DNA of 64,000 nt from Candidatus Omnitrophota bacterium. Its GTDB lineage: Bacteria > Omnitrophota > Omnitrophia > Omnitrophales > JACROU01. This document shows, one piece after another, positions 2,037 to 24,177 of the stretch (position 1 is the stretch's first letter; each line of letters opens with the position of its first letter). The stretch covers positions 429,126 through 493,125 of the forward strand of contig JAJDCD010000023.1 in the NCBI GenBank assembly GCA_029261035.1. Reading direction: 5' to 3'. A program made the position numbers and the translations under genes. Under the pieces are notes generated by a model. It saw nothing but the letters and a program-made list of their open reading frames with translations, searched no databases and had not been told where the DNA came from.

Positions 2037-2297
2037 ATGGAGCCCGTTAGAACTTATACTTATCTCGACAAGAAAGAAAAGATGTTGGGCATAGAAGTAA
2101 TGGATTTTTTAATTCTAGCTCTTATCTATGGGCTGGTTTTTAGTTGTTCCAGCAATATCATTTTAAATTTCATAATTGTGTTCTTAACGTATCTGGGATT
2201 ACGCCTTTATAAGCGCAACAAACCACCTCAATACACTGCAATGCTTTTTCGATTTTTATTTACGCCCAAATATTACACCTTAAAAGGAAGTGAATAA
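2037..2297 (+). CDS. VirB3-like type IV secretion membrane protein
   Basis: An 86-residue protein with one long hydrophobic hairpin near the N-terminus and a basic C-terminal half. It sits between the pilin and the VirB4 ATPase, exactly where VirB3/TrbD lies in conjugative operons. VirB3 proteins are inner-membrane partners of VirB4. Its stop overlaps the ribosome-binding region of the next gene, which suggests coupled translation. Confidence 0.75.
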   Translation: MEPVRTYTYLDKKEKMLGIEVMDFLILALIYGLVFSCSSNIILNFIIVFLTYLGLRLYKRNKPPQYTAMLFRFLFTPKYYTLKGSE

Positions 2298-2298
2298 C

Positions 2299-4773
2299 GT
2301 GCCGAATCCGGTTTTAGTCAGAGATATTTTACAATCCCGAAAAGAAGTTCCTTTTTACAATCAGATTGATTTACTTGCGATTGAGAAGGATGTTCTTATT
2401 GGAGCAAGTGGAAACCTCACAATGGGTTTTCGTTTTGAAGGAGATGATCTTTTCCTTAAATCAAAGCAGGAAATCATTTCATCCGTGGATTATTTAAGAA
2501 AAGCTTTTGGGCATCTTCCCGAAAGAACGCAAGTTCAATTTATCCTAAAACGTAAAGCTGGTCCCGGAAAAGCTCTGTATGACTACAGACGTGCAATCAA
2601 TCAAAAGGATCATCTTTCAAGAGAAATTTCAGAGACCAAATTCAACGCGCTTAAAAGAGATATTCTTTTTAATACGGAAGCTTATTGCTTTGTAACGAAG
2701 TTTTGCCATGAAAAGAAAAAGCTTACAGACAAGTTCATTACAAACAACACCAAAGCTATTGAAATTAGTCGGGAAGAGTATGAGAAAAAGAAAACCGAAC
2801 TTCAAAGCGCATTTTCTCATATTGCCGGAATCTTTAACCACCTAAAGATTGAAGCGACTCCACTCAATGAATGGCATTACAAAAAAATATTCTATTCACA
2901 TTTAAATCCGACACGTTCAGCGAAATTCAGATTAGGTAAGGTTCAGATTGATCCGGTCAATAATGTGACTTTGCGTTCTGCACTTCTTTTTTCAGCTCCG
3001 GTTGTAGAGCATGAACATTTTTATCAGGATGGTTATTTCTATCAGGGCATAAACCTACTTTTACCACCTGAGAGTACGGATATCCAAGGGCTTAGCAAAA
3101 TGCTGGATGAATTAGACATTGCTTATGATTTTATGTTGTCTTTCTATATTCCAAACAATGAAGAAGAAATAGAACAGCTCAAGACAAGGGCAAATGTATC
3201 CAAGACCTTTGGATTTATGGGAAGTTCAAAAAATTATGATGCCACCCAAAAGCACGCTGAAATTGATTCTTTAATTACAGAAATCAAATCTTCCACGCAA
3301 AAGCTAGTTCACTATTCCTTGTCTTTTCTCATTCGGGATAAGCATTTTAATTATCTTAAACAGAAGCAAGAAAAGCTTCTCGAAGCCTTTCCTGTCTTGG
3401 GAAGCTCTGAAGGACTTGCTGACCACATGAATCACGATCAGCTCTATCTAAGCTATTTACCCGGACATGCGTGGAAGAATCCACGGAAATACCTCATTCA
3501 ATCAGACGCGCTTGTAAACCTTCTACCATTTCACAAGAAATGGAGTGGTACAGAGAAAGCAAAATCTCTTCTGAAATCACGTAGTCATGAACTTATCAAG
3601 TTGGACTTGTTTGACTCTAGTCTTCCGGCTAAACATGGTCTGATTCTTGGAACAACAGGTTCTGGAAAATCCTTCACAACCAATTATTTGTTAATGAATT
3701 ACCTATTAGAAGATCCAACAAATCAATTAATTATTATTGATGTGGGAAATTCCTACAAGCGATTAGCCTCCATTTTTAAGGGCAATTATTATGATATTGA
3801 TTTGGGGGAGAATTACGCAATCAATCCTCTTATTCCTAAAAGCCTTTTGTTCCCTGATGGAAAACTTGACCATGAGACATTCGCTTACCTTGCTTTGGTT
3901 ATAGAGAAACTCGTTAAAGCACGCAACGACGAAGTCTTAAGCAATGCGCAGAAAAGACTCATTGAAAAAGCACTCCTTCAAACTTATAAGCAGAGTAATG
4001 CACCCATTTTAGGAGACGTGTTGAGAACGCTTCGGCAACATTCTTTTGATGAGGAAGAGAAGGTACTTGCTAAAGCATTTGCAAGCAACCTAGCCATCTG
4101 GGCAGAGGGGCGTTACGGAAAGCTTCTTGGCAGACAAGGTAATCTTGATATTCAAAACCGTTTTGTCGTTTTTGAGCTTGGAAAGTTAGACGGCTATCCT
4201 GATTTACAGTCGATTATTTTCTTTATTATCCGCTCTGCTATCACTAGTAAACTCTATCAGCGCAATACAAAAAAAGTAATTGTGATTGATGAAGGCTGGC
4301 GTTTCTTTAATGACGAAGCTGGATCAAAGCTCATTGAGGACTTATATCGTACCGCAAGAAAGTTTAATGGGCTTGTCTTGAGTATTTCTCAAAGCCCAGA
4401 AGACTTCCTGAATACAAAAGCCGCTAATGCCATTATCAGTAACTCCTTCACAAAATACATTTTGAAACTCAATCGTGATCCACAAATTTTGTCTCGCTTT
4501 GACTTTAATGATTCGGAAATTAATGCAGTTAAAACATTAACTGCTAAACCCGGATACTTTTCCGAAGTGTTTGTGAAATATAACCAACATTCCGCTGTCA
4601 CTCGTATTGAGCCGACACCGCTTGAATATTGGCTAGCAACGACTAGTCCAGAAGACTACAAACTAGAAGCCCAACAACGAAGCCTTTTTCCAAAGGCTTC
4701 TACATTAGAGCTCCTGAAGAATCTTGCAAAGCAGTATCCAAAGGGAGCTCACTATGCCACGCCCCGAAGATGA
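2299..4773 (+). CDS. VirB4/TraC-like type IV secretion ATPase
   Basis: A protein of about 824 residues powering pilus assembly and substrate transfer at the inner membrane. Walker A 'GTTGSGKS' lies near residue 450, and Walker B 'VIVIDEGWRFF' near residue 660 carries the DE-W signature of VirB4/TraC. Two GTG starts are possible, 2290 and 2299. The AAGGAAG sequence at 2284-2290 is correctly spaced only for 2299, so I chose that; 2290 would overlap the ribosome site and the VirB3 stop. The full-length N-terminal domain is present and the length is normal for the family. Confidence 0.93.
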   Translation: MPNPVLVRDILQSRKEVPFYNQIDLLAIEKDVLIGASGNLTMGFRFEGDDLFLKSKQEIISSVDYLRKAFGHLPERTQVQFILKRKAGPGKALYDYRRAINQKDHLSREISETKFNALKRDILFNTEAYCFVTKFCHEKKKLTDKFITNNTKAIEISREEYEKKKTELQSAFSHIAGIFNHLKIEATPLNEWHYKKIFYSHLNPTRSAKFRLGKVQIDPVNNVTLRSALLFSAPVVEHEHFYQDGYFYQGINLLLPPESTDIQGLSKMLDELDIAYDFMLSFYIPNNEEEIEQLKTRANVSKTFGFMGSSKNYDATQKHAEIDSLITEIKSSTQKLVHYSLSFLIRDKHFNYLKQKQEKLLEAFPVLGSSEGLADHMNHDQLYLSYLPGHAWKNPRKYLIQSDALVNLLPFHKKWSGTEKAKSLLKSRSHELIKLDLFDSSLPAKHGLILGTTGSGKSFTTNYLLMNYLLEDPTNQLIIIDVGNSYKRLASIFKGNYYDIDLGENYAINPLIPKSLLFPDGKLDHETFAYLALVIEKLVKARNDEVLSNAQKRLIEKALLQTYKQSNAPILGDVLRTLRQHSFDEEEKVLAKAFASNLAIWAEGRYGKLLGRQGNLDIQNRFVVFELGKLDGYPDLQSIIFFIIRSAITSKLYQRNTKKVIVIDEGWRFFNDEAGSKLIEDLYRTARKFNGLVLSISQSPEDFLNTKAANAIISNSFTKYILKLNRDPQILSRFDFNDSEINAVKTLTAKPGYFSEVFVKYNQHSAVTRIEPTPLEYWLATTSPEDYKLEAQQRSLFPKASTLELLKNLAKQYPKGAHYATPRR

Positions 4774-4855
4774 TGGCGGTTTCCTTGCCATCTTCTGTAT
4801 GTTTTTAACCGTTTGGATGCTTATTCTTTTAATCCTGAGACATGGAGGTATTTGA
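4754..4855 (+). CDS. 33-residue single-membrane-segment peptide of the transfer operon
   Basis: A short reading frame overlaps the last 20 bases of the VirB4 gene and ends one base before the next start at 4857. It has a good ribosome site (AAGGGAG at 4742-4748, followed by ATG at 4754). The peptide has an acidic start (MPRPEDDGG) then one hydrophobic stretch of about 18 residues (FLAIFCMFLTVWMLILLIL) and ends RHGGI. The tight packing supports translation. Its role is unknown; it sits where some systems encode a small VirB7- or TrbH-like accessory, but it has no lipobox. Confidence 0.5.
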   Translation: MPRPEDDGGFLAIFCMFLTVWMLILLILRHGGI

Positions 4856-4856
4856 G

Positions 4857-5615
4857 ATGAACCGACTGAAACAATTTGTGATGACTTTCATCATGGTGAC
4901 GGTGATCTCTGCCTCCGCTCAGGCGTTTACGGTGCATGACCCTATCAATGGCGCATACAACCTTCTTAGAAATACACTGCTGGAACTTCATCAAGTGGAA
5001 AATTTGAGAAACGCATTAGAAAGATTAACAGAACTCAAGAAAACATTTACTGAATTGGAAAGATTTCACAGCGGCATTGATCAAATCAGACAAGTCTTAA
5101 CCGGCGACTACAAAAGACTGCTCTACCGCTTCAACTCTGGTGGGCTTTCTAGTTTGGGGTACGAGCTTAATCGCTCCCAAAGAGACCTATATCAATTAGT
5201 GAATGGTGGTTTTAACTCAACTCAAAACTACCGATCACATCTTAATTCTATATTTGGTGAAGATCCTAACTCCGCGACCAAACCTTACATCACGCAAGAA
5301 GAAGTTTTTGTAGCTGACGGTTTACGCTGGTCGGGTGAAGTAAGAAAGATTATCGAAACCACCTTTGATGCCGGAGATGATATTTCAAGGGCTTCTCAAA
5401 CCGCATCACCCAAAGGAGCCGCTCGGTTGTCAGCCGATGCTCTTGGAAAAATATTGGTAACACAAGCGCAGATTCAGCAAAACCAATCAAAGCAAATTGA
5501 ATTAACCGCTCTTCAAGTGGAACAAAAGACTCGTGAGGAAAAATATTATGAACGTGAACGAATTAAATTTATGCGTGAGTTTAATCAACTCTTAGACGCA
5601 TTACCAAGCAGGTAA
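4857..5615 (+). CDS. VirB5/TrbJ-like conjugal transfer protein
   Basis: About 252 residues with a signal peptide (MNRLKQF then a hydrophobic core, cleavage near 'AQAF'), followed by a helix-rich, Glu/Lys-rich region and glutamine-rich helices at the C-terminus. The layout matches periplasmic VirB5/TrbJ minor-pilus proteins. The ATG at 4842 overlaps the GGAGGT ribosome site itself, so the ATG at 4857, seven bases after that site, is the better start. It is followed after three bases by the VirB6-like gene. Confidence 0.75.
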   Translation: MNRLKQFVMTFIMVTVISASAQAFTVHDPINGAYNLLRNTLLELHQVENLRNALERLTELKKTFTELERFHSGIDQIRQVLTGDYKRLLYRFNSGGLSSLGYELNRSQRDLYQLVNGGFNSTQNYRSHLNSIFGEDPNSATKPYITQEEVFVADGLRWSGEVRKIIETTFDAGDDISRASQTASPKGAARLSADALGKILVTQAQIQQNQSKQIELTALQVEQKTREEKYYERERIKFMREFNQLLDALPSR

Positions 5616-5618
5616 TCT

Positions 5619-6470
5619 ATGACTATATTTACAGACGCACTTCAAATACCGTCGTTATTTTCAGAGCTTTATGTTTCTGCACAACACATCGCTTTCTTGC
5701 TTGTGTTGCCCATGCTCGTCATTGCCATCTTGCATGAAAATATTGTTCAAATGGAAGTTAAAAGTAATTACACAGGGCTGTTTGTTCGTGTATTAATGAT
5801 TATAGGATTACTCATTATCTATGACCGTTTTTTCACGCTAGTTACTTACGGTACCGACTTACTTGGAAAGACTATTATGCCGGAGGGTGAGTTTGAGGCG
5901 GTCTTAGATACGATCTTCAAAGAGGTTAAGGAGAACAAAGATTTTGGCGTCTTTAACCTTCTTAAAGGAGCCTTGATAAATGGAGTTACCTATATCACCT
6001 ATATTATGACTCTCGTTGCCTATACTGTTTTAATTTGGCTACGCTTCATGTTGCTATCTCTTCTTTACGTTGCCGGTCCGATTCTGATTGCTTTCGGAAT
6101 CTATCGTCAAACAGCGAGTGCACTGGGGGCTTGGTTTCGCTCGCTTTTTCAAGTTTCATCATGGGTAGTAACACTATCCTTATTGGTAAGAATTTCGAGC
6201 TATATGAATCTTACGTCCATTTACAACATTGATAATGTCAACGCAATTTCAGTCATTACAGCAAATGTTTTATTTGTAATGTTATTTATTTTCACACCAG
6301 CGATTACATCTAGCCTTATCTCTGATGGAAACATTGGAACGATTGGTTCCACAATGATTGGTATTACAACAGCGACCACTTTGAAACTTGCAAAGAAAAT
6401 GGGAGCGGTAAAGGCCAGCTCAAATTTATTAAACCGTAAGAATCTGCAAGATCAATCTAATTCTATTTAG
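5619..6470 (+). CDS. VirB6/TrbL-like polytopic membrane protein
   Basis: A 283-residue inner-membrane protein with about six hydrophobic segments (for example residues 20-40, 50-70, 125-165, 180-200, 205-235). The arrangement and size fit VirB6/TrbL, the channel component at the inner membrane. It sits between the VirB5- and VirB8-like genes with gaps of 3 and 8 bases. The tail after the last helix is short and basic. The call is by topology and order, as this family is poorly conserved. Confidence 0.8.
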   Translation: MTIFTDALQIPSLFSELYVSAQHIAFLLVLPMLVIAILHENIVQMEVKSNYTGLFVRVLMIIGLLIIYDRFFTLVTYGTDLLGKTIMPEGEFEAVLDTIFKEVKENKDFGVFNLLKGALINGVTYITYIMTLVAYTVLIWLRFMLLSLLYVAGPILIAFGIYRQTASALGAWFRSLFQVSSWVVTLSLLVRISSYMNLTSIYNIDNVNAISVITANVLFVMLFIFTPAITSSLISDGNIGTIGSTMIGITTATTLKLAKKMGAVKASSNLLNRKNLQDQSNSI

Positions 6471-6478
6471 GAGAAATA

Positions 6479-7111
6479 ATGAACGATTTACCTAAACGAA
6501 AATACTTTGAAGTTTGGGGGGATTTAGAAGCTCAGAATAACACTTTAAAGCTTTTATTGATTTGTTTATGTGTTCTCTTGCTGTTATCTCTCTCACTGAC
6601 TTATTTAGCGACAAGAAAACCACCTGTTGTCATTCGCGTAGAGGACATCGGGAAAGCAGAAGGAGTAAAGGACTTCTCAGTTAATAATAACATTACTCAG
6701 ACTGAATACTTTTACTTTGCAAAGTTATTCATTCGGAAATTTACGGAATACAACTCTTACACCGTTTCATCTGAAATTACAGAAGCCTTTTCGTTGATGA
6801 CTTCCAATTATCAGAAGATTGCAAAAAGGGGAGTCATTGATTCAAATCTAATCAGCAAAATCTCACAAGCATCTATCAACACTAAAATCAAAATAAGAGA
6901 AATCAAGCTTGAACGCGAAGACGAAAACTGCGCCGTCATCTCCTTCTTGGGGTTGCGAAGTATTACCAGTTACAACGACCGCGAGTTTATGCAGGACAGC
7001 CTTTTTAAAGGCGACATTGTCTTAAAGAAAATTCCCCGAAGCATGAATCATCCCCAAGGTCTTTTGGTGGATGAATACCGCGAAATCCTTGTTAAACAAT
7101 TAGACGAATAA
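6479..7111 (+). CDS. VirB8/TraE-like bitopic inner-membrane protein
   Basis: 210 residues: a short cytoplasmic N-terminus, one transmembrane helix (about residues 25-45) and a periplasmic domain of mixed alpha/beta character. This is the VirB8/TraE design, a core scaffold that contacts VirB9 and VirB10. An AGGAGA ribosome site sits just before the ATG. It is followed by the VirB9 gene 14 bases later. Confidence 0.78.
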   Translation: MNDLPKRKYFEVWGDLEAQNNTLKLLLICLCVLLLLSLSLTYLATRKPPVVIRVEDIGKAEGVKDFSVNNNITQTEYFYFAKLFIRKFTEYNSYTVSSEITEAFSLMTSNYQKIAKRGVIDSNLISKISQASINTKIKIREIKLEREDENCAVISFLGLRSITSYNDREFMQDSLFKGDIVLKKIPRSMNHPQGLLVDEYREILVKQLDE

Positions 7112-7125
7112 ATGGAGGCTTTAAT

Positions 7126-8067
7126 ATGAAACGAATCCTAATTATCACCGGTCTGCTTATCTTTTCTACACAAATAGCACATGCGGAGAGTACGGATATT
7201 CTCGCAGAAAGGCAAAGAGAAAATAAACTCGCAAAAACAACCCCCAATATCTATAAAGTGACTGCCAAAACAGGTGTGGCTTTTAAAGTGCAAACTGCTA
7301 TTGGCTATATCACAACGATTGATTTACCGGAAACTGCCATGAAGGTATTTGTGGGAGACGCAGAGCTTTTCAAGGTTGAAGTTTATGACAAGCAGATTGT
7401 TGTCAAGCCCTTAACTGATTATCGGGATGCTAGAACCAATCTCACGGTTTATACAAAGACCGGACGCTTGAGCTTTGATGTTTCTGTTGGTCCGGCTGAG
7501 ACCGCAGATTTCGTCATGGACTTCAGATTGCCGGAAGATGATGCATTGGTTGAAAACGCTTTTCAGGATAAGGTTCGCCAGAAGGAGAAGGAACTGGAAA
7601 CACAATATCAGAAAAAAGTATCTCAACAAGAAGAAAAAGTAGCCGAACTCACGCAAGAAAAGTTTGAAGAGGAATTATCTAAAGGGGCATTAACCAAAAG
7701 ATTAAAAATCTCTGAAAAAGAAGATGGCGTTCAGGTCAACCTTTTATCTCTCTCTGAGGTTGGAACGAGAAGCTACATTCGCTTCAGTATTTTGAATTAT
7801 TCTGATAGAGACTACAGAATCCAGAATATTGTTCTGGGTAAAGAAACCATTCGCAGAAAAGGGTTTAACTTACGCAAAGAGGGTTTTGTTCCGGTAGAAG
7901 CTGAGGTTAATACAGAATATCTCATTCTGGCGAATAGCTATCACTATGGTCTGCTTCACTTTGACAAACTTGTCTTAAGAAAAAATGAACGTTTAGTTCT
8001 TAAAGTCTATGAAGAAGGCAATGCCAAGCCTATTCGCTTCTCTAATATTCCTTGGGAGGTGAAATAA
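7126..8067 (+). CDS. VirB9/TrbG-like outer-membrane complex protein
   Basis: 313 residues with a signal peptide ending near 'AHAES'. The N-terminal half has the VirB9 pattern: 'TTIDLPETAMKVFVGD', then 'VKPLTDYRDARTNLTVYT'. A Lys/Glu-rich helical stretch (about residues 145-185), probably coiled coil, separates it from a beta-rich C-terminal half. VirB9 forms the outer-membrane core ring with VirB10 and VirB7. The stop codon overlaps the ATG of the VirB10 gene by one base, so the two are probably translationally coupled. Confidence 0.82.
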   Translation: MKRILIITGLLIFSTQIAHAESTDILAERQRENKLAKTTPNIYKVTAKTGVAFKVQTAIGYITTIDLPETAMKVFVGDAELFKVEVYDKQIVVKPLTDYRDARTNLTVYTKTGRLSFDVSVGPAETADFVMDFRLPEDDALVENAFQDKVRQKEKELETQYQKKVSQQEEKVAELTQEKFEEELSKGALTKRLKISEKEDGVQVNLLSLSEVGTRSYIRFSILNYSDRDYRIQNIVLGKETIRRKGFNLRKEGFVPVEAEVNTEYLILANSYHYGLLHFDKLVLRKNERLVLKVYEEGNAKPIRFSNIPWEVK

Positions 8068-8963
8068 TGGCAAACGAAGAGCCCAAGACGTTTTATCACC
8101 AAACCAAGAAAGCTGTTACAAAACCCAAGCCCCTGACAATTGCTTTTGCTGCCATAGCATTCATCGTGATCCTTTTCATCTTTTACACAGGCACACGCAA
8201 AAATGATCGAAAGCATGAACCTACCAATGTGTCTGAAGAAATGAAATCTATTTACTCTAAAGTAGAGATAGAGAATCTGATTAAAGAACAACTTACAAAG
8301 GAAATTGAAAGCCAGCAAGACGGTCAGCTTTCAAACACACAAGAATCCGTCAAAAGAAAACTTAATTCCAAGATAGCAGTCTTCGTAAAGGAAACCCCCA
8401 AAGAAAGTTTAGCAGAGGTGAATCTGAAGCAAAGCCAAGAGCTGAAAGTTAATACCGGTGTGAAAATTAAAGCACACCTAGCCAACGCTGTTTTTTCTTT
8501 CAATGTTTCCAGTCCAGTCATTGCTGTCTCAGATGAGGAAATGCAAACCCATACGGATATACCCATTCCAAAAGGAACGCAATTTATTGGTGAAGCCAGT
8601 GTGATTAAAAGTCGAGATCGCGTGAATATTCGCTTTTCCACAATGGTATTCCCCGATGGAGAAGAGCACAGAATAAGAGCTATGGCTCTCAGCTTGGATG
8701 GTTCTGGCGGTATTGCTGGAAAAGTCGACAGAGATTTTGACAAGTCGCTTCTCAAAGCTACCGGTGAAACCATTTTGGCAGGAGCTTCCCTTGTGGTCGG
8801 AGCAAGGGATCGGGCAATTACGCTCGAAGATGAACTCCGGCTGAATACTGCAAGAAATCTCACCGAAGATGCAGAGGATGCTTTACGGCAAGTGAAGGTG
8901 GAGAAGTCCATTACGATTGAGTCTCACACCCCAATCCTCATCTTGTTTCTCGAATCAATCTAA
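8067..8963 (+). CDS. VirB10/TrbI-like core complex protein
   Basis: About 298 residues: a cytoplasmic N-terminus rich in lysine, one membrane helix (residues 25-45), a linker with coiled-coil character and the C-terminal VirB10 domain ('IPKGTQFIGEASV', 'VNIRFSTMVFPDGEEHRI', 'GGIAGKVDRDF'). VirB10 spans both membranes and senses ATPase activity. The ATG at 8067 has GGGAGGTG ahead of it; the TTG at 8052 overlaps that site and is rejected. It is the last recognisable transfer gene in this run and is followed after 27 bases by the TolC-like gene. Confidence 0.88.
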   Translation: MANEEPKTFYHQTKKAVTKPKPLTIAFAAIAFIVILFIFYTGTRKNDRKHEPTNVSEEMKSIYSKVEIENLIKEQLTKEIESQQDGQLSNTQESVKRKLNSKIAVFVKETPKESLAEVNLKQSQELKVNTGVKIKAHLANAVFSFNVSSPVIAVSDEEMQTHTDIPIPKGTQFIGEASVIKSRDRVNIRFSTMVFPDGEEHRIRAMALSLDGSGGIAGKVDRDFDKSLLKATGETILAGASLVVGARDRAITLEDELRLNTARNLTEDAEDALRQVKVEKSITIESHTPILILFLESI

Positions 8964-13550: not shown

Positions 13551-13733
13551 ATGGACACACTTATAGTAAAGCTTGAAAGATACCGACTGGAGAAAAAGAT
13601 CACGCAAGAGCGTCTTGCTAAGAAACTCGGCGTTTCTTTTACAACTGTGAATCGTTGGCTGAACGGTAAGGCGATGCCTAATAAAATACAACAGTATCAC
13701 ATCGAGAAGTTAGTTGGGTTAAAGAAAATTTAA
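13551..13733 (+). CDS. Xre-family HTH protein, possible R-M controller
   Basis: 60 residues, almost all a Cro/C1-type helix-turn-helix: 'YRLEKKITQERLAKKLGVS' then 'TTVNRWLNGKAMPN'. Small proteins of this kind act as controller (C) proteins of restriction-modification systems, and this one lies directly before two methyltransferase genes. It could equally be an unrelated small regulator. No strong ribosome site is seen upstream of the ATG. Confidence 0.7.
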   Translation: MDTLIVKLERYRLEKKITQERLAKKLGVSFTTVNRWLNGKAMPNKIQQYHIEKLVGLKKI

Positions 13734-13811
13734 ACATGGAAACATATTCAACTCTTGAAACCAAAGAAAGTAATTCTAAAAGAAATGGAAAAAACGGCAA
13801 AAGGAATCAGC

Positions 13812-14900
13812 ATGAACAATGAGCGCGTAGGTTTATTTGAGGAAAACATACTCTCAAACAAACTAGAAGGGCAGGCCTTTTTCTATTACAAGAACAAAAA
13901 AAAGAAAATTGTGGCTGATCCTAATTCTCTTAACCAAGAAAGAGCTGAGCAGAGACTCAAGGATTTGTTTGTAGAGTTTCAAACGACGCTACCAAAGAAG
14001 TTCATAGAAAACTGGGCTGATGTAAAACTATATGACCCAAGCGGTAATGTAGAAAAAGCCCACGCTATTATCCTTCAACCGGATCAAGGGGCATATGATC
14101 TAAAGAACAAAATTAATCATATGACTGGGAAAGAATGGACTTTATTCTCATGTAGTTGGTTTATTTTTAATGCGTTGAAAAAAGATTTAGACGAAGAGCG
14201 AAGAATATGCGGGAATTCAGCTGATCATCCTGCCACATACTCTCCAACCATGATGGAAGATTTTATAAAATTCTTCACCAAAGAAGGAATGAGCGTTCTT
14301 GACCCCTTTGCAGGTATTGGTAGCACTCTTGTTGGCTGCGCTAGGACAAATCGAGTAGGCTATGGTATCGAACTCAATGATAAATATTTCAACACAATCC
14401 TTAAAAGGGTACCAGAATTTAAAAAAAATATTGTTTGTGGTGATTCTCGGGACGTTAAAAAACATTTTAAAAAAAGGACTTTTGATTTTTGTATCTCATC
14501 ACCTCCATATTGGGATGTCTTAAACCGAAGTACCGGTAATTTTGAAAATAAAAGGATTGCACGTGGTCTTGATGTTAAGTATTCAGATAATTCTGTAGAT
14601 CTTGGAAACATCAGTGACTATGACGCCTTTCTATCCGAATTACATGCAGTGTATTCTGATATATATGATTTGCTAAGAGACGGAGCCTATCTTGTCATTA
14701 TCGTGAAAAATATAAAAAAAAGCGGTAAGTTATACCCATTAGCTTGGGATCTTGCTTCCAAGCTTTCTCGCAAATACTCTTTGAAGGACGAGAAAATTTG
14801 GATACAAGATAAGGTTGCGCTAGCCCCATATGGATATCCGTATTCTTGGACATCAAATATCTTGCATCATTACTGTATTATCTTGAGAAAAGAAAAATGA
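13812..14900 (+). CDS. DNA methyltransferase 1 of R-M island (amino-MTase, SPPYW type)
   Basis: 362 residues from the ATG at 13812, which has AAAAGGAA at good spacing; the frame is open back to a TTG at 13755. It carries the SAM-binding motif I 'DPFAGIGSTLVGCA' and the catalytic motif IV 'SPPYW', typical of N4-cytosine and some N6-adenine methyltransferases. In the primary sequence motif IV follows motif I. The second methyltransferase starts inside its stop codon (ATGA overlap), so the two are translationally coupled. The methylated base cannot be fixed from the motif alone. Confidence 0.85.
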   Translation: MNNERVGLFEENILSNKLEGQAFFYYKNKKKKIVADPNSLNQERAEQRLKDLFVEFQTTLPKKFIENWADVKLYDPSGNVEKAHAIILQPDQGAYDLKNKINHMTGKEWTLFSCSWFIFNALKKDLDEERRICGNSADHPATYSPTMMEDFIKFFTKEGMSVLDPFAGIGSTLVGCARTNRVGYGIELNDKYFNTILKRVPEFKKNIVCGDSRDVKKHFKKRTFDFCISSPPYWDVLNRSTGNFENKRIARGLDVKYSDNSVDLGNISDYDAFLSELHAVYSDIYDLLRDGAYLVIIVKNIKKSGKLYPLAWDLASKLSRKYSLKDEKIWIQDKVALAPYGYPYSWTSNILHHYCIILRKEK

Positions 14901-16534
14901 CGCCCGAATCAGTCATTGAGATTCCTACGCTCCCAATAAAGAAGAAAAAGATTCTTAATCCAAACGGGAAACCAAACTTATCTGGATACATATCCCCGCC
15001 AACTGATAATCTCAAAGTAAAACGGTATGCCAAAATTTACAACGTCCATAAATACTGGTCGCGCAAACCCTGGTATCCCATTTCTGAGTGCATAAAAAAA
15101 TACTCTAACAAGCAAGACCTAGTCGTAGATATGTTTATGGGCAGTGGCGTTGTCGGACTCGAAGCAAGTATATTAGGGAGAGATTTTGTTGGGTTTGATT
15201 TAAATCCAATGAGCATTTTTATTGCAAGTAATACATTTTCTTGCAACTTTGATGCTGGGGAATTCAAGAAAGACCTTGATATACTAAAAACAAGAATAGA
15301 AGGCATCGCGAGCGAGTATTATTCGGTAAAGGATAAATGTGCGAACTGTAAGAATAATTTAATGATAAAACATTGCAACATTGGTCCTAAACACAAAGGT
15401 AAAGAAACGGTTGCCCTTTATTGTTATTCTTGCTCGTCAAGCCGAACCCAGAGTATTCGCCCGCTTAAAAAGAAAGAACTAAATGATTGCCACAGCACTC
15501 GTTCTCCTAAGATATCAATCCCTGATGCACGATTTCCTGAAAAATTCTACAAGGATCGATTTTCTTATAAAGGGGTGTCAAAAGTTAGTGATATGTACAC
15601 AAGTCGAAATTATTATTTTTTAGGACTTTTGCTTAGAGAAATCCATCAATTAAACTCGAAATATAGAGATCTTTTGTTAACTGCTTTTTCTAATACCGTC
15701 CTACATGCGAGTAAATTAAAAAGTGAAAATGTTCGCCCTCTCAATGTAAACAATTACTGGCTTCCAGATGATTATTTTGAAGAAAATCCTTGGTTCAGAT
15801 ATCTTGAAAGAATTGACCTAATCATCAGTTCAAAAGAGATATTATCTCAGAGAATAAAAGGAAAGCCTTTAGGAAAATATAAATTAAACAATATTTCGTG
15901 TTTTAAAACCAAGCTAGACAGCACCAGCGTAGACTATATATTGACCGATCCACCTTATGGCGATGCAATTCAATATTCCGAATTATCTTTTATGTGGAAT
16001 TCATGGATGGGGTTTAACTTTGACAATGAAAAAGAAGTTGTTATAAATCCAGTTCAAGGAAAAAAGATTGGAGACTATCTTGGTCTCCTTGAAAAAAGTG
16101 TTGTCGAAGCATCTAGGATCCTAAAAAAAGACAAGTTTTATACATTGTGTTTTCACAATAAAGAATTTTCTATTTGGAAAGGCGTTCTGGATATATTTAA
16201 AAACAACAACTTCGTTCTTGAGAATATTGATATCGTAAATACGAAAGGCAATCCATATAATTCCAACTGGGCGCAGTTTTCACCAAAGTCAGATCTCTAC
16301 TTAACCTTTAGGAAAAATCATTACATCGCAAAGTATCATTCGGAACATAGAATCAATGATTTTATTAGAGAGTTATTTACTAATATTACGACCAATGACC
16401 CTGCTTCTTTGTACGATTTTATTGCAGTTAATTTAATAAACGATTTGTATTTTAATGATTATCAAATGAATGTGAATGGGTTGGATTTGAAAACAATATT
16501 TAAAATTTACAAAGAGGTGAAAAATGGAGATTGA
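14897..16534 (+). CDS. DNA methyltransferase 2 of R-M island (DPPYGD type, zinc-binding insert)
   Basis: 545 residues. An N-terminal 'KYWSRKPWYPISECI' block precedes the SAM motif 'DMFMGSGVVGLEA' (about residue 77) and 'GFDLNP'. A likely zinc ribbon (CANC, then CYSC, about residues 150-180) follows, and the catalytic 'TDPPYGD' lies near residue 351. It is an amino-methyltransferase that modifies adenine N6 or cytosine N4. Two different methyltransferases side by side suggest an asymmetric target with one enzyme per strand. The TTG at 14846 inside the previous gene is rejected in favour of the ATG at 14897. Confidence 0.83.
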   Translation: MTPESVIEIPTLPIKKKKILNPNGKPNLSGYISPPTDNLKVKRYAKIYNVHKYWSRKPWYPISECIKKYSNKQDLVVDMFMGSGVVGLEASILGRDFVGFDLNPMSIFIASNTFSCNFDAGEFKKDLDILKTRIEGIASEYYSVKDKCANCKNNLMIKHCNIGPKHKGKETVALYCYSCSSSRTQSIRPLKKKELNDCHSTRSPKISIPDARFPEKFYKDRFSYKGVSKVSDMYTSRNYYFLGLLLREIHQLNSKYRDLLLTAFSNTVLHASKLKSENVRPLNVNNYWLPDDYFEENPWFRYLERIDLIISSKEILSQRIKGKPLGKYKLNNISCFKTKLDSTSVDYILTDPPYGDAIQYSELSFMWNSWMGFNFDNEKEVVINPVQGKKIGDYLGLLEKSVVEASRILKKDKFYTLCFHNKEFSIWKGVLDIFKNNNFVLENIDIVNTKGNPYNSNWAQFSPKSDLYLTFRKNHYIAKYHSEHRINDFIRELFTNITTNDPASLYDFIAVNLINDLYFNDYQMNVNGLDLKTIFKIYKEVKNGD

Positions 16535-17597
16535 TGCGAAAACATTGATCAATATTTTAAACCAGAACTACGGACATCCTATTATAGAGACCCAACTAGG
16601 TCAGGGTGTTCAGGTGGACTGTCGTACTGCTTTTTTATACTCCATAGTAACCGGCTCTGGATACTTAGATAACCCACTTTACCCATTTACCGCCAAAGGT
16701 CTAATGAAAGTGTTTTACACAGCTATGGATTACAAATTTGTAACAGGCTTGTTTGATAACACGACCCTAAAAAACACGCCTTATATTCTCTCCAAAGCAA
16801 AGCCCTATTTATTCGACAGTGACAAGATCATAATTCCTGTGGAGTTTAATACAGAAATCGAATTACAAGATAAGTTAAAACATTTTTCAAAGAACACGGC
16901 TAACTCTACGAATTATTTAATTCAAAGAATAGAATGTTCTAAAAAAGGTAATGGAATGGAACCTTTTATGGAATACTTAGCTTGTGAGACGATGAAAAGA
17001 CAGGGGTATATCGTTGAGAACCAAATACCGCTTAGTCATGCCACCGGCTCGCCAGATTTTGGAGGGTATTCGTTAGCTAAATATTTACCCTCTTACTTAA
17101 ATAGTATCCACTTAATTGAATTGTCGCTTATACGGTTAGGCTTTGAAATTAAGGGAGCATCATCTATATCTAAAATGTGGAATATTGTAGGTGAAGCAAA
17201 AACTAGTTCGTTTGAGATGAAAAAGCAATTAGATAAGTACCTGTCATCTCATTACTTTGACGAAGGATTTGAGATACACCCTTTCAAACGAAAGCCCTCT
17301 TCTGATTATTTAGGACTTATTACAATCGATGATCTATTGAAAATTAAAGTTATTGTGTGTAAGGCCCCCAAAAAATTATCTGCAGCTTGCCAACAAGATT
17401 ATTTCTCATGGTTGGCAAATTATATAAAGTATTATTTAATTGCAAATTTTACAAACGATGAGTTTATAGATTTCTATCAAAAAAAAATGACGAGTCCTAT
17501 ATCATCGAAAGAAGATATAGTTGGCTTCGTAAACAATTTGACGTTTGAGGAAATACTAACCGTAATAGGCAAGGTATCACAAAATGGCGCAATCTAG
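16524..17597 (+). CDS. putative restriction endonuclease subunit, PD-(D/E)xK-like
   Basis: 357 residues of no family I can name. The middle holds a plausible nuclease core: a helix with Glu ('GMEPFMEYLACETM'), then 'GSPDFGG' with Asp178, and 'VGEAKTSSFE' with Glu224 and Lys226 on a predicted strand. This is the PD-(D/E)xK order seen in many restriction enzymes. The gene starts 11 bases inside methyltransferase 2 with a GAGGTG site, and overlaps the next gene by 14 bases. Position and motif make it the best candidate for a cleavage subunit. Confidence 0.6.
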   Translation: MEIDAKTLINILNQNYGHPIIETQLGQGVQVDCRTAFLYSIVTGSGYLDNPLYPFTAKGLMKVFYTAMDYKFVTGLFDNTTLKNTPYILSKAKPYLFDSDKIIIPVEFNTEIELQDKLKHFSKNTANSTNYLIQRIECSKKGNGMEPFMEYLACETMKRQGYIVENQIPLSHATGSPDFGGYSLAKYLPSYLNSIHLIELSLIRLGFEIKGASSISKMWNIVGEAKTSSFEMKKQLDKYLSSHYFDEGFEIHPFKRKPSSDYLGLITIDDLLKIKVIVCKAPKKLSAACQQDYFSWLANYIKYYLIANFTNDEFIDFYQKKMTSPISSKEDIVGFVNNLTFEEILTVIGKVSQNGAI

Positions 17598-18639
17598 TGA
17601 TGAGATAATAAAAAGAGAGCTCATAGATGAATTTGGCACAGATTATAATGGGCTTTCCTTAAGGGTATTTCCCGAATCTAGTAACGCAGATCAATTGATA
17701 TTTAGCGACTTGGGCGGTTTGACATTTGGCGTATGTGGGATTCCTTATGGCTCATGTGATGCATGTTGGGTAAAAAAAGAACCTTGGATTAATCCATTTA
17801 ATAATGAGCGAGTTTCCCACACACCCGTAATTGCCCTGGAAGGCACCGACGCTCTAAACCGAGGGTCCTCTGGCAACGCTCAATATCAGCGCTTTCATCA
17901 CGCGCTAGGTGCAGTGAAGTCAGGAATAATTGGTGTTTATTATTTAAAAAAAGGCGCGCATAAAGTTCAAGAAGACTTGTATGGCATGGCGTATTATGCA
18001 TCGAAAGTGGAGAAAGGGACTTATTTAATAATAGACGATTTACAAGATCTAAGAGCTTTATTAAATGCTGTTTCATGCAAAGACAGCCTCACAAAATATT
18101 TAGAATCATATCAAGACCGTATGTATGCAATTTTTAAAAAACGTTTTGATAGCAGCTATGGTAGTTGGGATAAATTTTCACAAAAGAGATCCACCATTAT
18201 AAAAGACAATTTCATCATTAAGCATTCTGGCAGGATGAAGCGTAATTTTACAGACGGTTCGCAGAGGGCTGGGCACATTGCTGTTGGTGAAATGTACTTA
18301 ACCAAATATTTTTTTTATGACAAACATTTTTTTTATTTGTGGCCAAAAATGACGGGTGAAGATAGGGAGTATCTAGATAAGCATAAAAAAACGGATAAAG
18401 AGTGGGCCCTGCTACGAAATGAACCCAGCGTCACAATTTTAACCATCGATGATTTGAATGGCGTGCCACTAGATGTTGTAAATACGTTAAAGAAAATTAG
18501 AAATGAGCCACTGAAAGGGAATGTCCTATCAACCTATCGTAAATGTGTTGAAATAATTGAACGGGGCTTTAAGTGCGATGAGATTATAATTAATAAAAAA
18601 ATGTTCACGAACTTAAATATTCAACTCAAAGATAATTAA
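17584..18639 (+). CDS. putative second restriction subunit, unknown fold
   Basis: 351 residues, not recognised with certainty. A conserved-looking block (about residues 80-125) reads 'PVIALEGTDALNRGSSGNAQ' followed by 'YQRFHHALGAV' and 'GIIGVYYL'. The E-G-T step after a hydrophobic strand could be a variant nuclease active site lacking the usual lysine, or a partner binding site. The 14-base overlap with the preceding gene argues for a two-subunit enzyme. Heterodimeric type II enzymes with two methyltransferases (BbvCI, Bpu10I) offer a precedent, but I cannot show homology. Confidence 0.5.
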   Translation: MAQSSDEIIKRELIDEFGTDYNGLSLRVFPESSNADQLIFSDLGGLTFGVCGIPYGSCDACWVKKEPWINPFNNERVSHTPVIALEGTDALNRGSSGNAQYQRFHHALGAVKSGIIGVYYLKKGAHKVQEDLYGMAYYASKVEKGTYLIIDDLQDLRALLNAVSCKDSLTKYLESYQDRMYAIFKKRFDSSYGSWDKFSQKRSTIIKDNFIIKHSGRMKRNFTDGSQRAGHIAVGEMYLTKYFFYDKHFFYLWPKMTGEDREYLDKHKKTDKEWALLRNEPSVTILTIDDLNGVPLDVVNTLKKIRNEPLKGNVLSTYRKCVEIIERGFKCDEIIINKKMFTNLNIQLKDN

Positions 18640-18664
18640 TTAGCTTCCATGAAACCAGTAGCAA

Positions 18665-19321
18665 ATGAAAAATACACAATCACCCATTTCGTTTAGACTC
18701 AAACAATATTATGTAGACGAAGCAAGGCATAATAAAAAAAATCCGCTAGATGAATTAATATTTATTATTTGTAGTATTAAACGAAGTGAAAAAGTTTATC
18801 TTCAAGCTTTCAACGCTCTCAACAGAAAATTTCCATCTTACGCTAAAATGTCGGCAGCTACATTTTTAGATATACGAGACACCCTCGCTCCGTTTGGTCT
18901 TCAGAATGAAAAAGCAAAAACCATAAAAGATATTCTTTCGTCAATTAGCAAGCACTTCGGAAAGCTTTCGTTAGCTCCGCTTAAGAATTGGAACGATCAA
19001 GAATGTGAAGAGTTTCTGATGAGTTTGCGAGGGGTTGGTAAGAAGGTTGCCCGTTGTGTCATGATGTATTCTTTAGGGCGAAATGTTTTCCCAGTGGATT
19101 CAAATTGTTGGAGAGTTGGCTACCGGCTAGGGTGGGTTAACTGGACTTCATGGAAAACGACAATAAGTGCCAACGATATGGATTTGCTTCAAAATAAGAT
19201 TCCCGCAAGATTGCGATACAGTTTGCATGAAAATATGGTATTTCATGGAAGAAAGATATGCACACCCATTAATCCCAAATGTAATATTTGCCCTATAAGT
19301 ACTTACTGTCCATCATTTTGA
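18665..19321 (+). CDS. HhH-GPD DNA glycosylase, endonuclease III-like
   Basis: 218 residues. The helix-hairpin-helix 'LRGVGKKVA' carries Lys127 at the place of the catalytic Lys120 of endonuclease III, and 'PVDSN' carries Asp145. The spacing of 18 residues equals that between Lys120 and Asp138. The C-terminus has the iron-sulfur pattern C-x6-C-x2-C-x5-C ('CTPINPKCNICPISTYC'). It should be a bifunctional glycosylase/AP lyase with a [4Fe-4S] cluster. It closes the R-M island, 25 bases after the second putative nuclease subunit. R-M-linked glycosylases usually repair deaminated methylcytosine, but neither methyltransferase here is of the C5 type. Confidence 0.85.
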   Translation: MKNTQSPISFRLKQYYVDEARHNKKNPLDELIFIICSIKRSEKVYLQAFNALNRKFPSYAKMSAATFLDIRDTLAPFGLQNEKAKTIKDILSSISKHFGKLSLAPLKNWNDQECEEFLMSLRGVGKKVARCVMMYSLGRNVFPVDSNCWRVGYRLGWVNWTSWKTTISANDMDLLQNKIPARLRYSLHENMVFHGRKICTPINPKCNICPISTYCPSF

Positions 19322-19328
19322 ATCTACC

Positions 19329-19357
19329 TTGAATACCATAAATATTTATGGTATATT
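19329..19357 (+). promoter_or_regulatory. promoter with embedded palindromic operator of the LexA-like gene
   Basis: TTGAAT (19329-19334), a 17-base spacer and TATATT (19352-19357) form a near-ideal sigma-70 promoter. A perfect 22-bp palindrome (19333-19354; half-site ATACCATAAAT) fills the spacer, the right place for a repressor to block polymerase. Transcription would start near 19363-19365, immediately before the ATG at 19366. Confidence 0.7.
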
Positions 19358-21836: not shown

Positions 21837-22706
21837 ATGAAGAAGCCTAAAACAATTAAATTATATCTCGTGGATGGAGAACCCACAGGGATCAGGACGG
21901 CAGAGCTATCGAATTGGGATGGTAAAGCAATTGTAATTCCTCGAAATCGTATGAAGAGCGCAAAAGACCGAGAAGAGGTACAATCTCCAGCGGTGTATTT
22001 ATTAGTAGGAGCAGAAGATAATGATGAACTCTTGAAAGTTTATGTTGGCGAAGCTGAAACTGTTATGACTCGATTAGCTCAGCATGAAACCAATAAGGAC
22101 TTTTGGCAATATGCTGTGGCTTTTATTTCTAAAAGCAATAACCTAACCAAAGCCCATGTGAAATTCTTGGAAAGTCACATCATTGAAACCCTTTCAAAAT
22201 CTGGTCGATGTCGATTAGAGAATCATGTGTCGCCAAACAAGGTCAATTTACCGGAGTCTGATCAGTCGGATATGATCGAGTTTATTGAGAACTTGGAACT
22301 TCTTACCGGAGCTCTTGGCTGGAACTTTTTCCGGCAATCGTCTTCGGTGACTACAGCTGAAAAAATAAAATATTATTGTTCAGGTCCTTCCGCAAAAGCA
22401 GAAGGGTTTATGGATGATGAAGGTTTTATTGTTCTTAAAGATTCTTATGCTCGATCTAAATTGGTTGAGAGTGCCAAAGCCGGCTGGGTTCCAAACATTC
22501 ACCAAAAGTTATTGTCAAACAACATTCTGAGAAAAGAAGGTGATTCTTATTATTTTACACAAGACTACCTTTTTAATAGCCCTAGCGCAGCAGCAGCTGC
22601 AATATTGGCGTGTCATGCCAATGGTTGGACGGTGTGGAAAACAAAAGACGGGCAAACGCTAAGCCAAATTGAGCGTGAAGAACTTAAGGAGGGTAATGAT
22701 CAATAA
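21837..22706 (+). CDS. GIY-YIG nuclease with DUF4357 domain
   Basis: 289 residues from the ATG at 21837 (AAAGGAG at 21827-21833). The N-terminal part holds a GIY-YIG-like fold: 'AVYLLVGAED', then 'VYVGEAETVMTRLAQH' and the Glu in 'VKFLESHIIE'. The C-terminus ('YYCSGPSAKAEGFMDDEGF') is typical of DUF4357. Proteins of this build are common in mobile elements and phage-like islands. They are believed to be DNA nucleases, but their physiological role is not established. It overlaps the next gene by 11 bases. Confidence 0.82.
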   Translation: MKKPKTIKLYLVDGEPTGIRTAELSNWDGKAIVIPRNRMKSAKDREEVQSPAVYLLVGAEDNDELLKVYVGEAETVMTRLAQHETNKDFWQYAVAFISKSNNLTKAHVKFLESHIIETLSKSGRCRLENHVSPNKVNLPESDQSDMIEFIENLELLTGALGWNFFRQSSSVTTAEKIKYYCSGPSAKAEGFMDDEGFIVLKDSYARSKLVESAKAGWVPNIHQKLLSNNILRKEGDSYYFTQDYLFNSPSAAAAAILACHANGWTVWKTKDGQTLSQIEREELKEGNDQ

Positions 22707-24177
22707 GAATCGTTGTTTTAAAATCAGCGCATCCACTTTTTACAACCTCTCTCAATGCAAGAGACGTGTTTATATGGACGAGCATTGGGATATTTCAGAA
22801 CGTGGCGAAGAGTCTGATTTTGCACGAATGCTTTGGGAAAAGGGTGTTCAAATAGAAGAAGAAATCATCCAAAAGGTTAAGAAAGAAGCATCCTTTGAAT
22901 CTATTGAAGGTCCAGCAAATGAAGATTTATTTCATGCGACTTTAGAGCTAATGAAAAAAGGGGTCGAGTTTATTTATCAAGGTGTGCTTATCCATGAGGA
23001 TAAAATTGGGCGCCCAGATCTACTAGAGAAGGTTCCCGGGAAATCTGTTTTTGGGGATTATCACTATCTACCTTCGGATATCAAATCTGGTAGAGCCACA
23101 ATTCGTGAAGACTCATCTCAAATAAAAAAGCATTACGCTAACCAAATGGTTTTTTATTGTGAACTCCTTGAAAAGATTCAAGGCACCCGTCCCTCTCATG
23201 CGCGGATCATTGATGTTACAGCTGATGTGACAGAATTTGATATTGCTGACTATCAACAAGCCTACATCGATAGCAATGAACTAGTGAACGCTATTGTTTA
23301 TCATAAGAAAGAAGTTCAGCCGGTAATAAGTGCCACTTGCAAGCAATGTGTTTGGCATGACCCATGTTACAAATGGGCAAAAGAGAGAAGCGACCCTACG
23401 CTGCTTTTTTATTTAGGCGCAAAGGTTGATGAGTTTAAGCAAAGAGGGATTGCCACAATTGCTGATGTTAGAGATATCGATGTTTCCGAATTTTCTGGAA
23501 AGAAGAAAATTAAAGGTGTTGGTGATAAAATTCTTCTCCAACTTAAGAGAAGAGCCGAAGTTTTCTTAAATGGAAAACCTATCATATTTGAAAAGCCACA
23601 ACTTCGCAAAGCGTCCTTGGAAGTTTATTACGATATTGAAGACGACCCTTCAATCGATCACATCTATTTGCATGGTTTTATTGAAGTTCAGAATGGCAAG
23701 CAACGTGATTACTCGTACTTTTTGGCTCCAGAGCGTAATGATGAAAAAAAAGCAGCTCTTGAATTCTGGAATTATATTGAAAAGCTTCCAGATGATGCGG
23801 TTATCTACCACTATGGGAACCACGAAAAAACAAAAGCTAATCTTCTTATGAGAAAATATGATCTCGATTCTGCCATGGTAGAAAAGTTTGATCGATTAAG
23901 AGTTGACTTGTATGAAGTTGTCAAGAAATGTAGTGATTGGCCTCTGACATCGTATGGCATCAAACCCATTGCAAAGTATTTAGGCTTTAATTGGGAGGCA
24001 GAAGATGCTTCTGGTGCAAACTCGATTGCATGGTACAGCGAATATCGAAAAGACCCTCAAGGAAAAAAGGATTTGCTCGATAAAATTATCACCTATAACA
24101 AAGATGATTGTGAAGCGACCATTGTTGTAAAGGAGTGGCTTGAAAATCAGTATAAAAAACAAACAATGAAAGGATGA
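22696..24177 (+). CDS. TM0106-type RecB-like nuclease
   Basis: 493 residues. The N-terminal half has a RecB-type PD-(D/E)xK core ('GRPDLLEKV', then 'PSDIKSGRATI') and a cysteine set ('CKQCVWHDPC') that may bind an iron-sulfur cluster. A helix-hairpin-helix-like 'IKGVGDKILLQL' follows. The C-terminal half has an RNase H-like exonuclease fold ('LEVYYDIEDDP' to 'YNKDDCEATIVV'). This is the TM0106 'RecB family nuclease' layout. The ATG at 22696 lies close to AAGGAGGG; a GTG at 22669 is an alternative. It probably acts in DNA processing or defence within the element. Confidence 0.82.
   Translation: MINKNRCFKISASTFYNLSQCKRRVYMDEHWDISERGEESDFARMLWEKGVQIEEEIIQKVKKEASFESIEGPANEDLFHATLELMKKGVEFIYQGVLIHEDKIGRPDLLEKVPGKSVFGDYHYLPSDIKSGRATIREDSSQIKKHYANQMVFYCELLEKIQGTRPSHARIIDVTADVTEFDIADYQQAYIDSNELVNAIVYHKKEVQPVISATCKQCVWHDPCYKWAKERSDPTLLFYLGAKVDEFKQRGIATIADVRDIDVSEFSGKKKIKGVGDKILLQLKRRAEVFLNGKPIIFEKPQLRKASLEVYYDIEDDPSIDHIYLHGFIEVQNGKQRDYSYFLAPERNDEKKAALEFWNYIEKLPDDAVIYHYGNHEKTKANLLMRKYDLDSAMVEKFDRLRVDLYEVVKKCSDWPLTSYGIKPIAKYLGFNWEAEDASGANSIAWYSEYRKDPQGKKDLLDKIITYNKDDCEATIVVKEWLENQYKKQTMKG

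What the first reader, a model, noticed from the sequence alone, without database searches (positions are those of the whole stretch)
13551..19321. Six-gene restriction-modification island with two methyltransferases, two putative nuclease subunits and an endonuclease III-like glycosylase
Seen: HTH controller, SPPYW methyltransferase, DPPYGD methyltransferase with zinc insert, a PD-(D/E)xK-like protein (Asp178, Glu224, Lys226), an unclassified partner overlapping it by 14 bases, and an HhH-GPD enzyme with Lys127/Asp145 and an iron-sulfur cluster motif. Genes 2-5 overlap one another. Known: heterodimeric type II enzymes such as BbvCI use two R and two M subunits, and T/G-mismatch glycosylases accompany 5-methylcytosine systems. 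Odd: neither methyltransferase is a C5 type, so the glycosylase has no obvious repair job. It might take part in cleavage by base excision plus AP lyase, or protect against some other lesion.
Basis: partly seen in the sequence, partly recalled or inferred. Interest (0 to 1): 0.7.

Follow-up and report, generated by a model that had tools for sequence, protein, structure and literature searches.

The report
Two-subunit restriction system, unlinked DNA glycosylase
This is a four-gene bacterial anti-phage restriction system with two DNA-marking and two probable DNA-cutting proteins, found scattered across unrelated bacteria. The neighbouring DNA-repair-like gene is a local extra that other copies of the system do without.

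Summary
The six genes exist as described, with the stated motifs and overlaps. Comparison with eight other loci (Omnitrophota, Verrucomicrobia, Patescibacteria, Staphylococcus, one IMG/VR contig) shows that the unit is four genes, M1-M2-R1-R2. R1 and R2 are adjacent in all eight. M2 is next to them in all eight, and M1 in all six not truncated by a contig end. R1 keeps SPD178...GE224xK226 at 41% identity. R2 has no sequence relatives in Pfam, NCBIfam, PADLOC or the PDB. Its AlphaFold model (pLDDT 88.6) significantly matches only BsmI among solved structures, an enzyme I take to be a single chain with two different catalytic sites. The best reading is a Type IIT-like system: two methyltransferases mark an asymmetric site, one strand each, and an R1-R2 heteromer cuts it. 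The endonuclease III-like gene is found near none of the other loci, and three genomes carrying the system show no HhH-GPD gene at all. It is therefore not a core part. It keeps the catalytic Lys, Asp and Fe-S cysteines but has diverged in two specificity-linked motifs, so it is probably a cargo repair gene. The block follows conjugation genes, suggesting an integrative element. This is a new member of a known kind.

The parts
13551..13733 (+). XRE/Cro-type HTH protein, 60 aa, possible controller; not conserved in the other loci
   Evidence: PF01381 E=5.9e-12; no blastp match in the other loci
13755..14900 (+). M1: amino-methyltransferase with SPPYW motif IV (probably N4C type); true start may lie further in
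   Evidence: N6_N4_Mtase E=2.6e-19; 57-65% blastp identity to orthologues in 6 loci; DPF.GIG and SSPPYW invariant
14846..16534 (+). M2: amino-methyltransferase with HKYWSRKPW and DPPYGD motifs and a Cys4 insert; likely start ATG 14897
   Evidence: N6_N4_Mtase E=6.8e-20; about 40% identity to orthologues, both motifs invariant, insert absent from the five aligned
16524..17597 (+). R1: putative PD-(D/E)xK nuclease subunit (E146, E150, SPD178, GE224xK226)
   Evidence: 41-53% identity, residues invariant in 8 sequences; not in Pfam/NCBIfam/PADLOC/PDB; low-confidence fold model
17584..18639 (+). R2: second putative endonuclease subunit, BsmI-like fold, candidate D59...E86-x-T88 active site
   Evidence: 52-59% identity in 8 sequences; AF2 pLDDT 88.6; only PDB fold matches with E<1e-3 are three BsmI entries
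18665..19321 (+). HhH-GPD glycosylase with K127, D145 and 4Fe-4S cysteines; local accessory, not part of the conserved system
   Evidence: PF00730 and PF10576; absent from all other loci; PVDSN and SIKRS replace PVDTH and SQNT
19333..19354 (.). 22-bp perfect palindrome before the next gene, probable operator of a second LexA-like repressor; suggests a separate unit downstream of the glycosylase
   Evidence: no other copy in the genome with fewer than 3 mismatches

Best explanation
Genes M1-M2-R1-R2 form a mobile Type IIT-like restriction-modification system. M1 (SPPYW, probably N4-methylcytosine) and M2 (DPPYGD, N6-adenine or N4-cytosine) each methylate one strand of an asymmetric target. R1 (PD-(D/E)xK) and R2 (BsmI-like fold) assemble into one heteromeric endonuclease with two different catalytic sites, each cutting one strand of the unmethylated target, like a two-chain counterpart of BsmI. 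Shown: the genes, their linkage across phyla, the conserved R1 signature, and R2's fold match. Inferred: complex formation, strand assignment, target and bases modified. The downstream glycosylase is a cargo repair gene of the same mobile region, perhaps read through from the operon but not required.
For: R1 and R2 homologues occur only as an adjacent pair, next to M2 in 8/8 loci and M1 in 6/6 not truncated upstream. Their spread over Omnitrophota, Verrucomicrobia, Patescibacteria, Staphylococcus and a viral-collection contig, while only 1 of 193 phylum relatives besides the host has R2, fits horizontal transfer of a unit. R1 active-site residues are invariant at 41% identity. R2's fold matches BsmI at E=1.5e-4 and probability 1.00 in three entries, with the next hit at 1.9e-2. 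Type IIT enzymes have two different catalytic sites, may be two chains or one, and are generally accompanied by two MTases (PMC4081073). The glycosylase is missing from all other loci, and three genomes carrying the system show no HhH-GPD gene.
Against: R1's model is poor (pLDDT 60) and gave no fold match, so its nuclease fold rests on motifs. R2 has a Thr where the catalytic Lys would be, so its activity is uncertain; it could instead be a recognition subunit. The R2-BsmI match is multi-domain with TM 0.40-0.43 and large rmsd. No target or activity is known. M2 of the Staphylococcus copy is interrupted.
Confidence: 0.72

Rival explanations
1. The glycosylase is a functional sixth component in this lineage: it excises a base (modified foreign, or unmethylated target) and with AP lyase action adds to restriction, or repairs a lesion caused by the system.
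For: It lies 25 nt after R2 on the same strand with no convincing promoter between. It keeps catalytic Lys and Asp but carries PVDSN, like ROS1's PVDTN and unlike the PVDTH of Nth-type relatives, and lost the SQNT loop, so its substrate may be special. Base-excision restriction exists (PabI, PMC4357717).
Against: Absent from all eight other loci and from three whole genomes with the system. PabI has an unrelated half-pipe fold. Neither M is a C5 type, so there is no 5mC deamination product to repair.
Confidence: 0.1
2. The glycosylase belongs with the downstream LexA-like repressor as a stress-linked repair pair of the mobile element, independent of the restriction genes.
For: 26 nt separate it from a second LexA-like gene with its own 22-bp palindrome. 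The phylum relatives whose surroundings were read are chromosomal genes with no R-M nearby.
Against: The palindrome lies after the glycosylase, so it probably controls only the LexA-like gene; no copy lies upstream of the glycosylase. The pair was not looked for elsewhere.
Confidence: 0.35
3. R2 is not a nuclease but the recognition/assembly subunit, and R1 dimerises to cut both strands.
For: R2's candidate site is D59...ExT without the Lys; only R1 has a canonical (D/E)xK.
Against: R2's only significant structural relative is BsmI, and D59, E86, Q102, R103 and K112 are invariant, as expected of a catalytic core.
Confidence: 0.2

Closest known systems
BsmI / Mva1269I (single-chain enzyme with two catalytic domains)
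   Same: R2's only significant PDB fold match; R1+R2 (708 aa) is about as long as the BsmI chain in the hit (674)
   Different: Two separate chains; no detectable sequence similarity; catalytic Lys of R2 not in the usual place; R1's fold unconfirmed
BbvCI / Bpu10I (Type IIT heterodimers)
   Same: Two R genes and two M genes; two chains presumed to cut one strand each
   Different: BbvCI R1 and R2 resemble each other (about 27% identity, NgoMIV-like; PMC6326814). Here R1 and R2 show no resemblance noted, and the M proteins are amino-MTases
BtsI / BsrDI (Type IIT, large and small subunit, two MTases)
   Same: Two R subunits and two MTases (PMC2909958)
   Different: Subunits here are of equal size; no sequence match found
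PabI-type base-excision restriction
   Same: A glycosylase with AP lyase activity acting as a restriction enzyme
   Different: PabI has a half-pipe fold; the HhH-GPD protein here is not conserved with the methyltransferases
DrEndoIII1 (DR2438)-type and other Nth-like HhH-GPD glycosylases
   Same: HhH-GPD fold, Lys/Asp, 4Fe-4S; best NCBIfam match (80 bits)
   Different: Far below the family's cut-off (400 bits); PVDSN and SIKRS motif changes

Membership tests
Type IIT restriction-modification | Two MTases accompany the endonuclease | tested here: met
   M1 and M2 both PF01555 and linked to R1-R2
Type IIT restriction-modification | Two different endonuclease subunits or domains | tested here: met
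   R1 and R2 always adjacent, different sequences, 8/8 loci
Type IIT restriction-modification | Two different catalytic sites | tested here: inconclusive
   R1 canonical motif; R2 BsmI-like fold but D...ExT
Type IIT restriction-modification | Asymmetric target, each strand cut by its own site | not testable with these tools
   needs methylome or cleavage assay
BsmI-like endonucleases | Fold similarity | tested here: met
   R2 versus 9ez5/9ez7/9ezd, E 1.5e-4 to 3.2e-4, probability 1.00
BsmI-like endonucleases | Sequence similarity | tested here: not met
   profile search of PDB sequences gave no BsmI
BsmI-like endonucleases | Single chain holding both catalytic domains | tested here: not met
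   two ORFs in all loci
HhH-GPD/EndoIII glycosylases (gene 6) | HhH-GPD domain, catalytic Lys and Asp, 4Fe-4S loop | tested here: met
Housekeeping Nth orthologue (gene 6) | Is the genome's Nth | tested here: not met
   own Nth-like gene at G000:C20:193370 is separate; gene 6 scores 70 bits against an nth cut-off of 211.7
PabI base-excision restriction | PabI fold | tested here: not met
   gene 6 is HhH-GPD
T/G-mismatch (MIG/V.MthTI-like) glycosylase with a C5 methyltransferase | Partner C5 methyltransferase | tested here: not met
   no C5 MTase match for M1 or M2

The most novel reading that the evidence does not exclude
In this lineage the HhH-GPD protein, with ROS1-like PVD(S/T)N instead of PVDTH, has been recruited as a base-excising arm of the restriction system. 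It would remove modified bases from foreign DNA that R1-R2 cannot cut, making a combined Type II plus modification-dependent system.
Probability: 0.07. Interest if true: 0.75.

Novelty: new member of a known kind. Interest (0 to 1): 0.35.

Why it matters
R1 and R2 are two sequence families absent from Pfam, NCBIfam, PADLOC and the PDB sequences, in a compact unit spread across unrelated phyla including reduced Patescibacteria. If R1+R2 is a two-chain counterpart of BsmI, it bears on how single-chain two-site enzymes arose from heterodimers and could supply strand-specific nicking enzymes. It also removes a tempting but unsupported story about a glycosylase in restriction.

Tried and rejected
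- Plasmid and phage collections: no R2 match in either; no R1 match in plasmids. First genome-contig scan with the single R2 found nothing; the two-sequence alignment found six loci.
- R1 fold search: model too weak, hits meaningless.
- Glycosylase in viral contigs: none. Plasmid hits were ordinary endonuclease III genes.
- First glycosylase tree used wrong strands (discarded). The second is weakly resolved with a very long glycosylase branch; it only places the gene away from the host's own Nth.
- Neighbours of M1/M2 homologues on plasmids and a phage: other contexts, no R1/R2 annotated; M1 and M2 relatives are shared among different systems.
- RadC as a core partner: upstream of M1 in four loci, but absent next to the system in the window, the Staphylococcus locus and the IMG/VR contig, so at most an accessory.

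Full report
Observation. The six ORFs lie on the + strand at the stated coordinates and carry the stated motifs. M1 and M2 are PF01555 amino-methyltransferases. R1 and R2 have no usable family match in Pfam, NCBIfam, PADLOC or PHROGs and no sequence match in the PDB. Gene 6 is an HhH-GPD glycosylase with a 4Fe-4S loop. M2 probably starts at ATG 14897 with an ATGA overlap with M1.

Origin. The window lies in a 2.7 Mb genome. G110, from the same phylum, matches an Omnitrophota contig (L011; same 16,752-base length and R2 position), so the host is taken to be an Omnitrophota bacterium. The restriction block follows type IV secretion genes (VirB4/TraC, VirB6/TrbL-like, CagX/VirB9, TrbI/VirB10), which suggests cargo of an integrative conjugative element. 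The element's ends were not mapped.

What is conserved. R2 was found in one other Omnitrophota genome among 193 relatives, and R1 in the same one among 384. Alignment-based scans added Verrucomicrobia, three Patescibacteria, Staphylococcus and an IMG/VR contig; a class search added another genome, G647. In all eight loci R1 and R2 are neighbours with M2 beside them. M1 is present in the six loci not cut off upstream by a contig end. In the Staphylococcus locus M1 and M2 are on the opposite strand and the M2 frame is interrupted. R2 identity to the window copy is 52-59% and R1 41-53%. Such similarity across phyla with sporadic occurrence indicates horizontal transfer of a four-gene unit.

Nuclease evidence. 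R1 keeps E146, E150, SPD178 and GE224xK226 in all eight sequences, a normal PD-(D/E)xK layout, but its model is weak (pLDDT 60). R2 models well (pLDDT 88.6). Foldseek against the PDB gives three BsmI entries as the only matches below 1e-3 (1.5e-4 to 3.2e-4, probability 1.00). From the predicted strand order and conservation I infer a core with D59 and E86-x-T88 followed by the QRFHHALG helix. The usual lysine position holds threonine, so R2 may use a displaced lysine or may not be catalytic. That BsmI is a single chain with two different catalytic domains is from my own knowledge of its isoschizomer Mva1269I, described in PMC4081073. The same review states that Type IIT enzymes may be two chains or one and are generally accompanied by two methyltransferases.

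The glycosylase. No other locus has it (L051 ORFs). A genome-wide search with PF00730 found no HhH-GPD gene in three Patescibacteria genomes that carry the system, while all 14 control genomes were positive; these are metagenome assemblies and may be incomplete. In the host it is the fourth HhH-GPD gene and not the Nth. Its best relatives in the phylum (30-38%) are chromosomal genes; those whose surroundings were read lie among biosynthesis and transport genes, away from restriction genes. It keeps K127, D145 and the four cysteines, but has PVDSN where host Nth and chromosomal relatives have VDTH, and SIKRS where they have SAQCT/SQNT. ROS1, the top solved-structure match, has PVDTN. This hints at altered specificity but does not tie the gene to restriction. 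A second LexA-like gene with its own perfect palindrome follows, so the glycosylase is the last gene before a separate unit.

Conclusion. The island is a Type IIT-like restriction-modification system with a neighbouring cargo glycosylase. Family linkage and the two-subunit gene layout are shown; fold and activity of R1, catalysis by R2, complex formation, target and modified bases are inferred. Type IIT membership is likely but not proven, because the two catalytic sites and the asymmetric target are untested. Membership in a BsmI family is not claimed: the fold of R2 matches, but sequence and chain organisation do not.

Noticed in passing
L007:398-1084, L012:3547-4275, L013:3580-4263, L014:3601-4263: A RadC (PF04002) gene lies directly upstream of M1, overlapping by 4 nt or within 11 nt, in four loci from two phyla; in three of these genomes it is the only RadC found. 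Function of the pairing unknown.
   Followed up: partly
19333-19354: Perfect 22-bp palindrome ATACCATAAATATTTATGGTAT before a second LexA-like gene (likely start ATG 19366); no other copy in the genome with fewer than 3 mismatches.
   Followed up: yes
2290-8963: Type IV secretion genes (VirB4/TraC, VirB6/TrbL-like, CagX/VirB9, TrbI/VirB10) upstream of the island: probable integrative conjugative element.
   Followed up: partly
22669-24177: 502-aa protein with an RNase_H_2 domain and a weak PD-(D/E)xK match; function unclear.
   Followed up: no
L015:4145-5753: In Staphylococcus sp. Marseille-Q5304 the M2 frame is interrupted while R1, R2 and M1 are open; sequencing error or real decay not distinguished.
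   Followed up: no
L007:9809-11731: A second, ordinary Type II restriction-modification pair (PADLOC REase_II E=1.6e-129 with an MTase) lies near the R1-R2 system in the other Omnitrophota genome.
   Followed up: no
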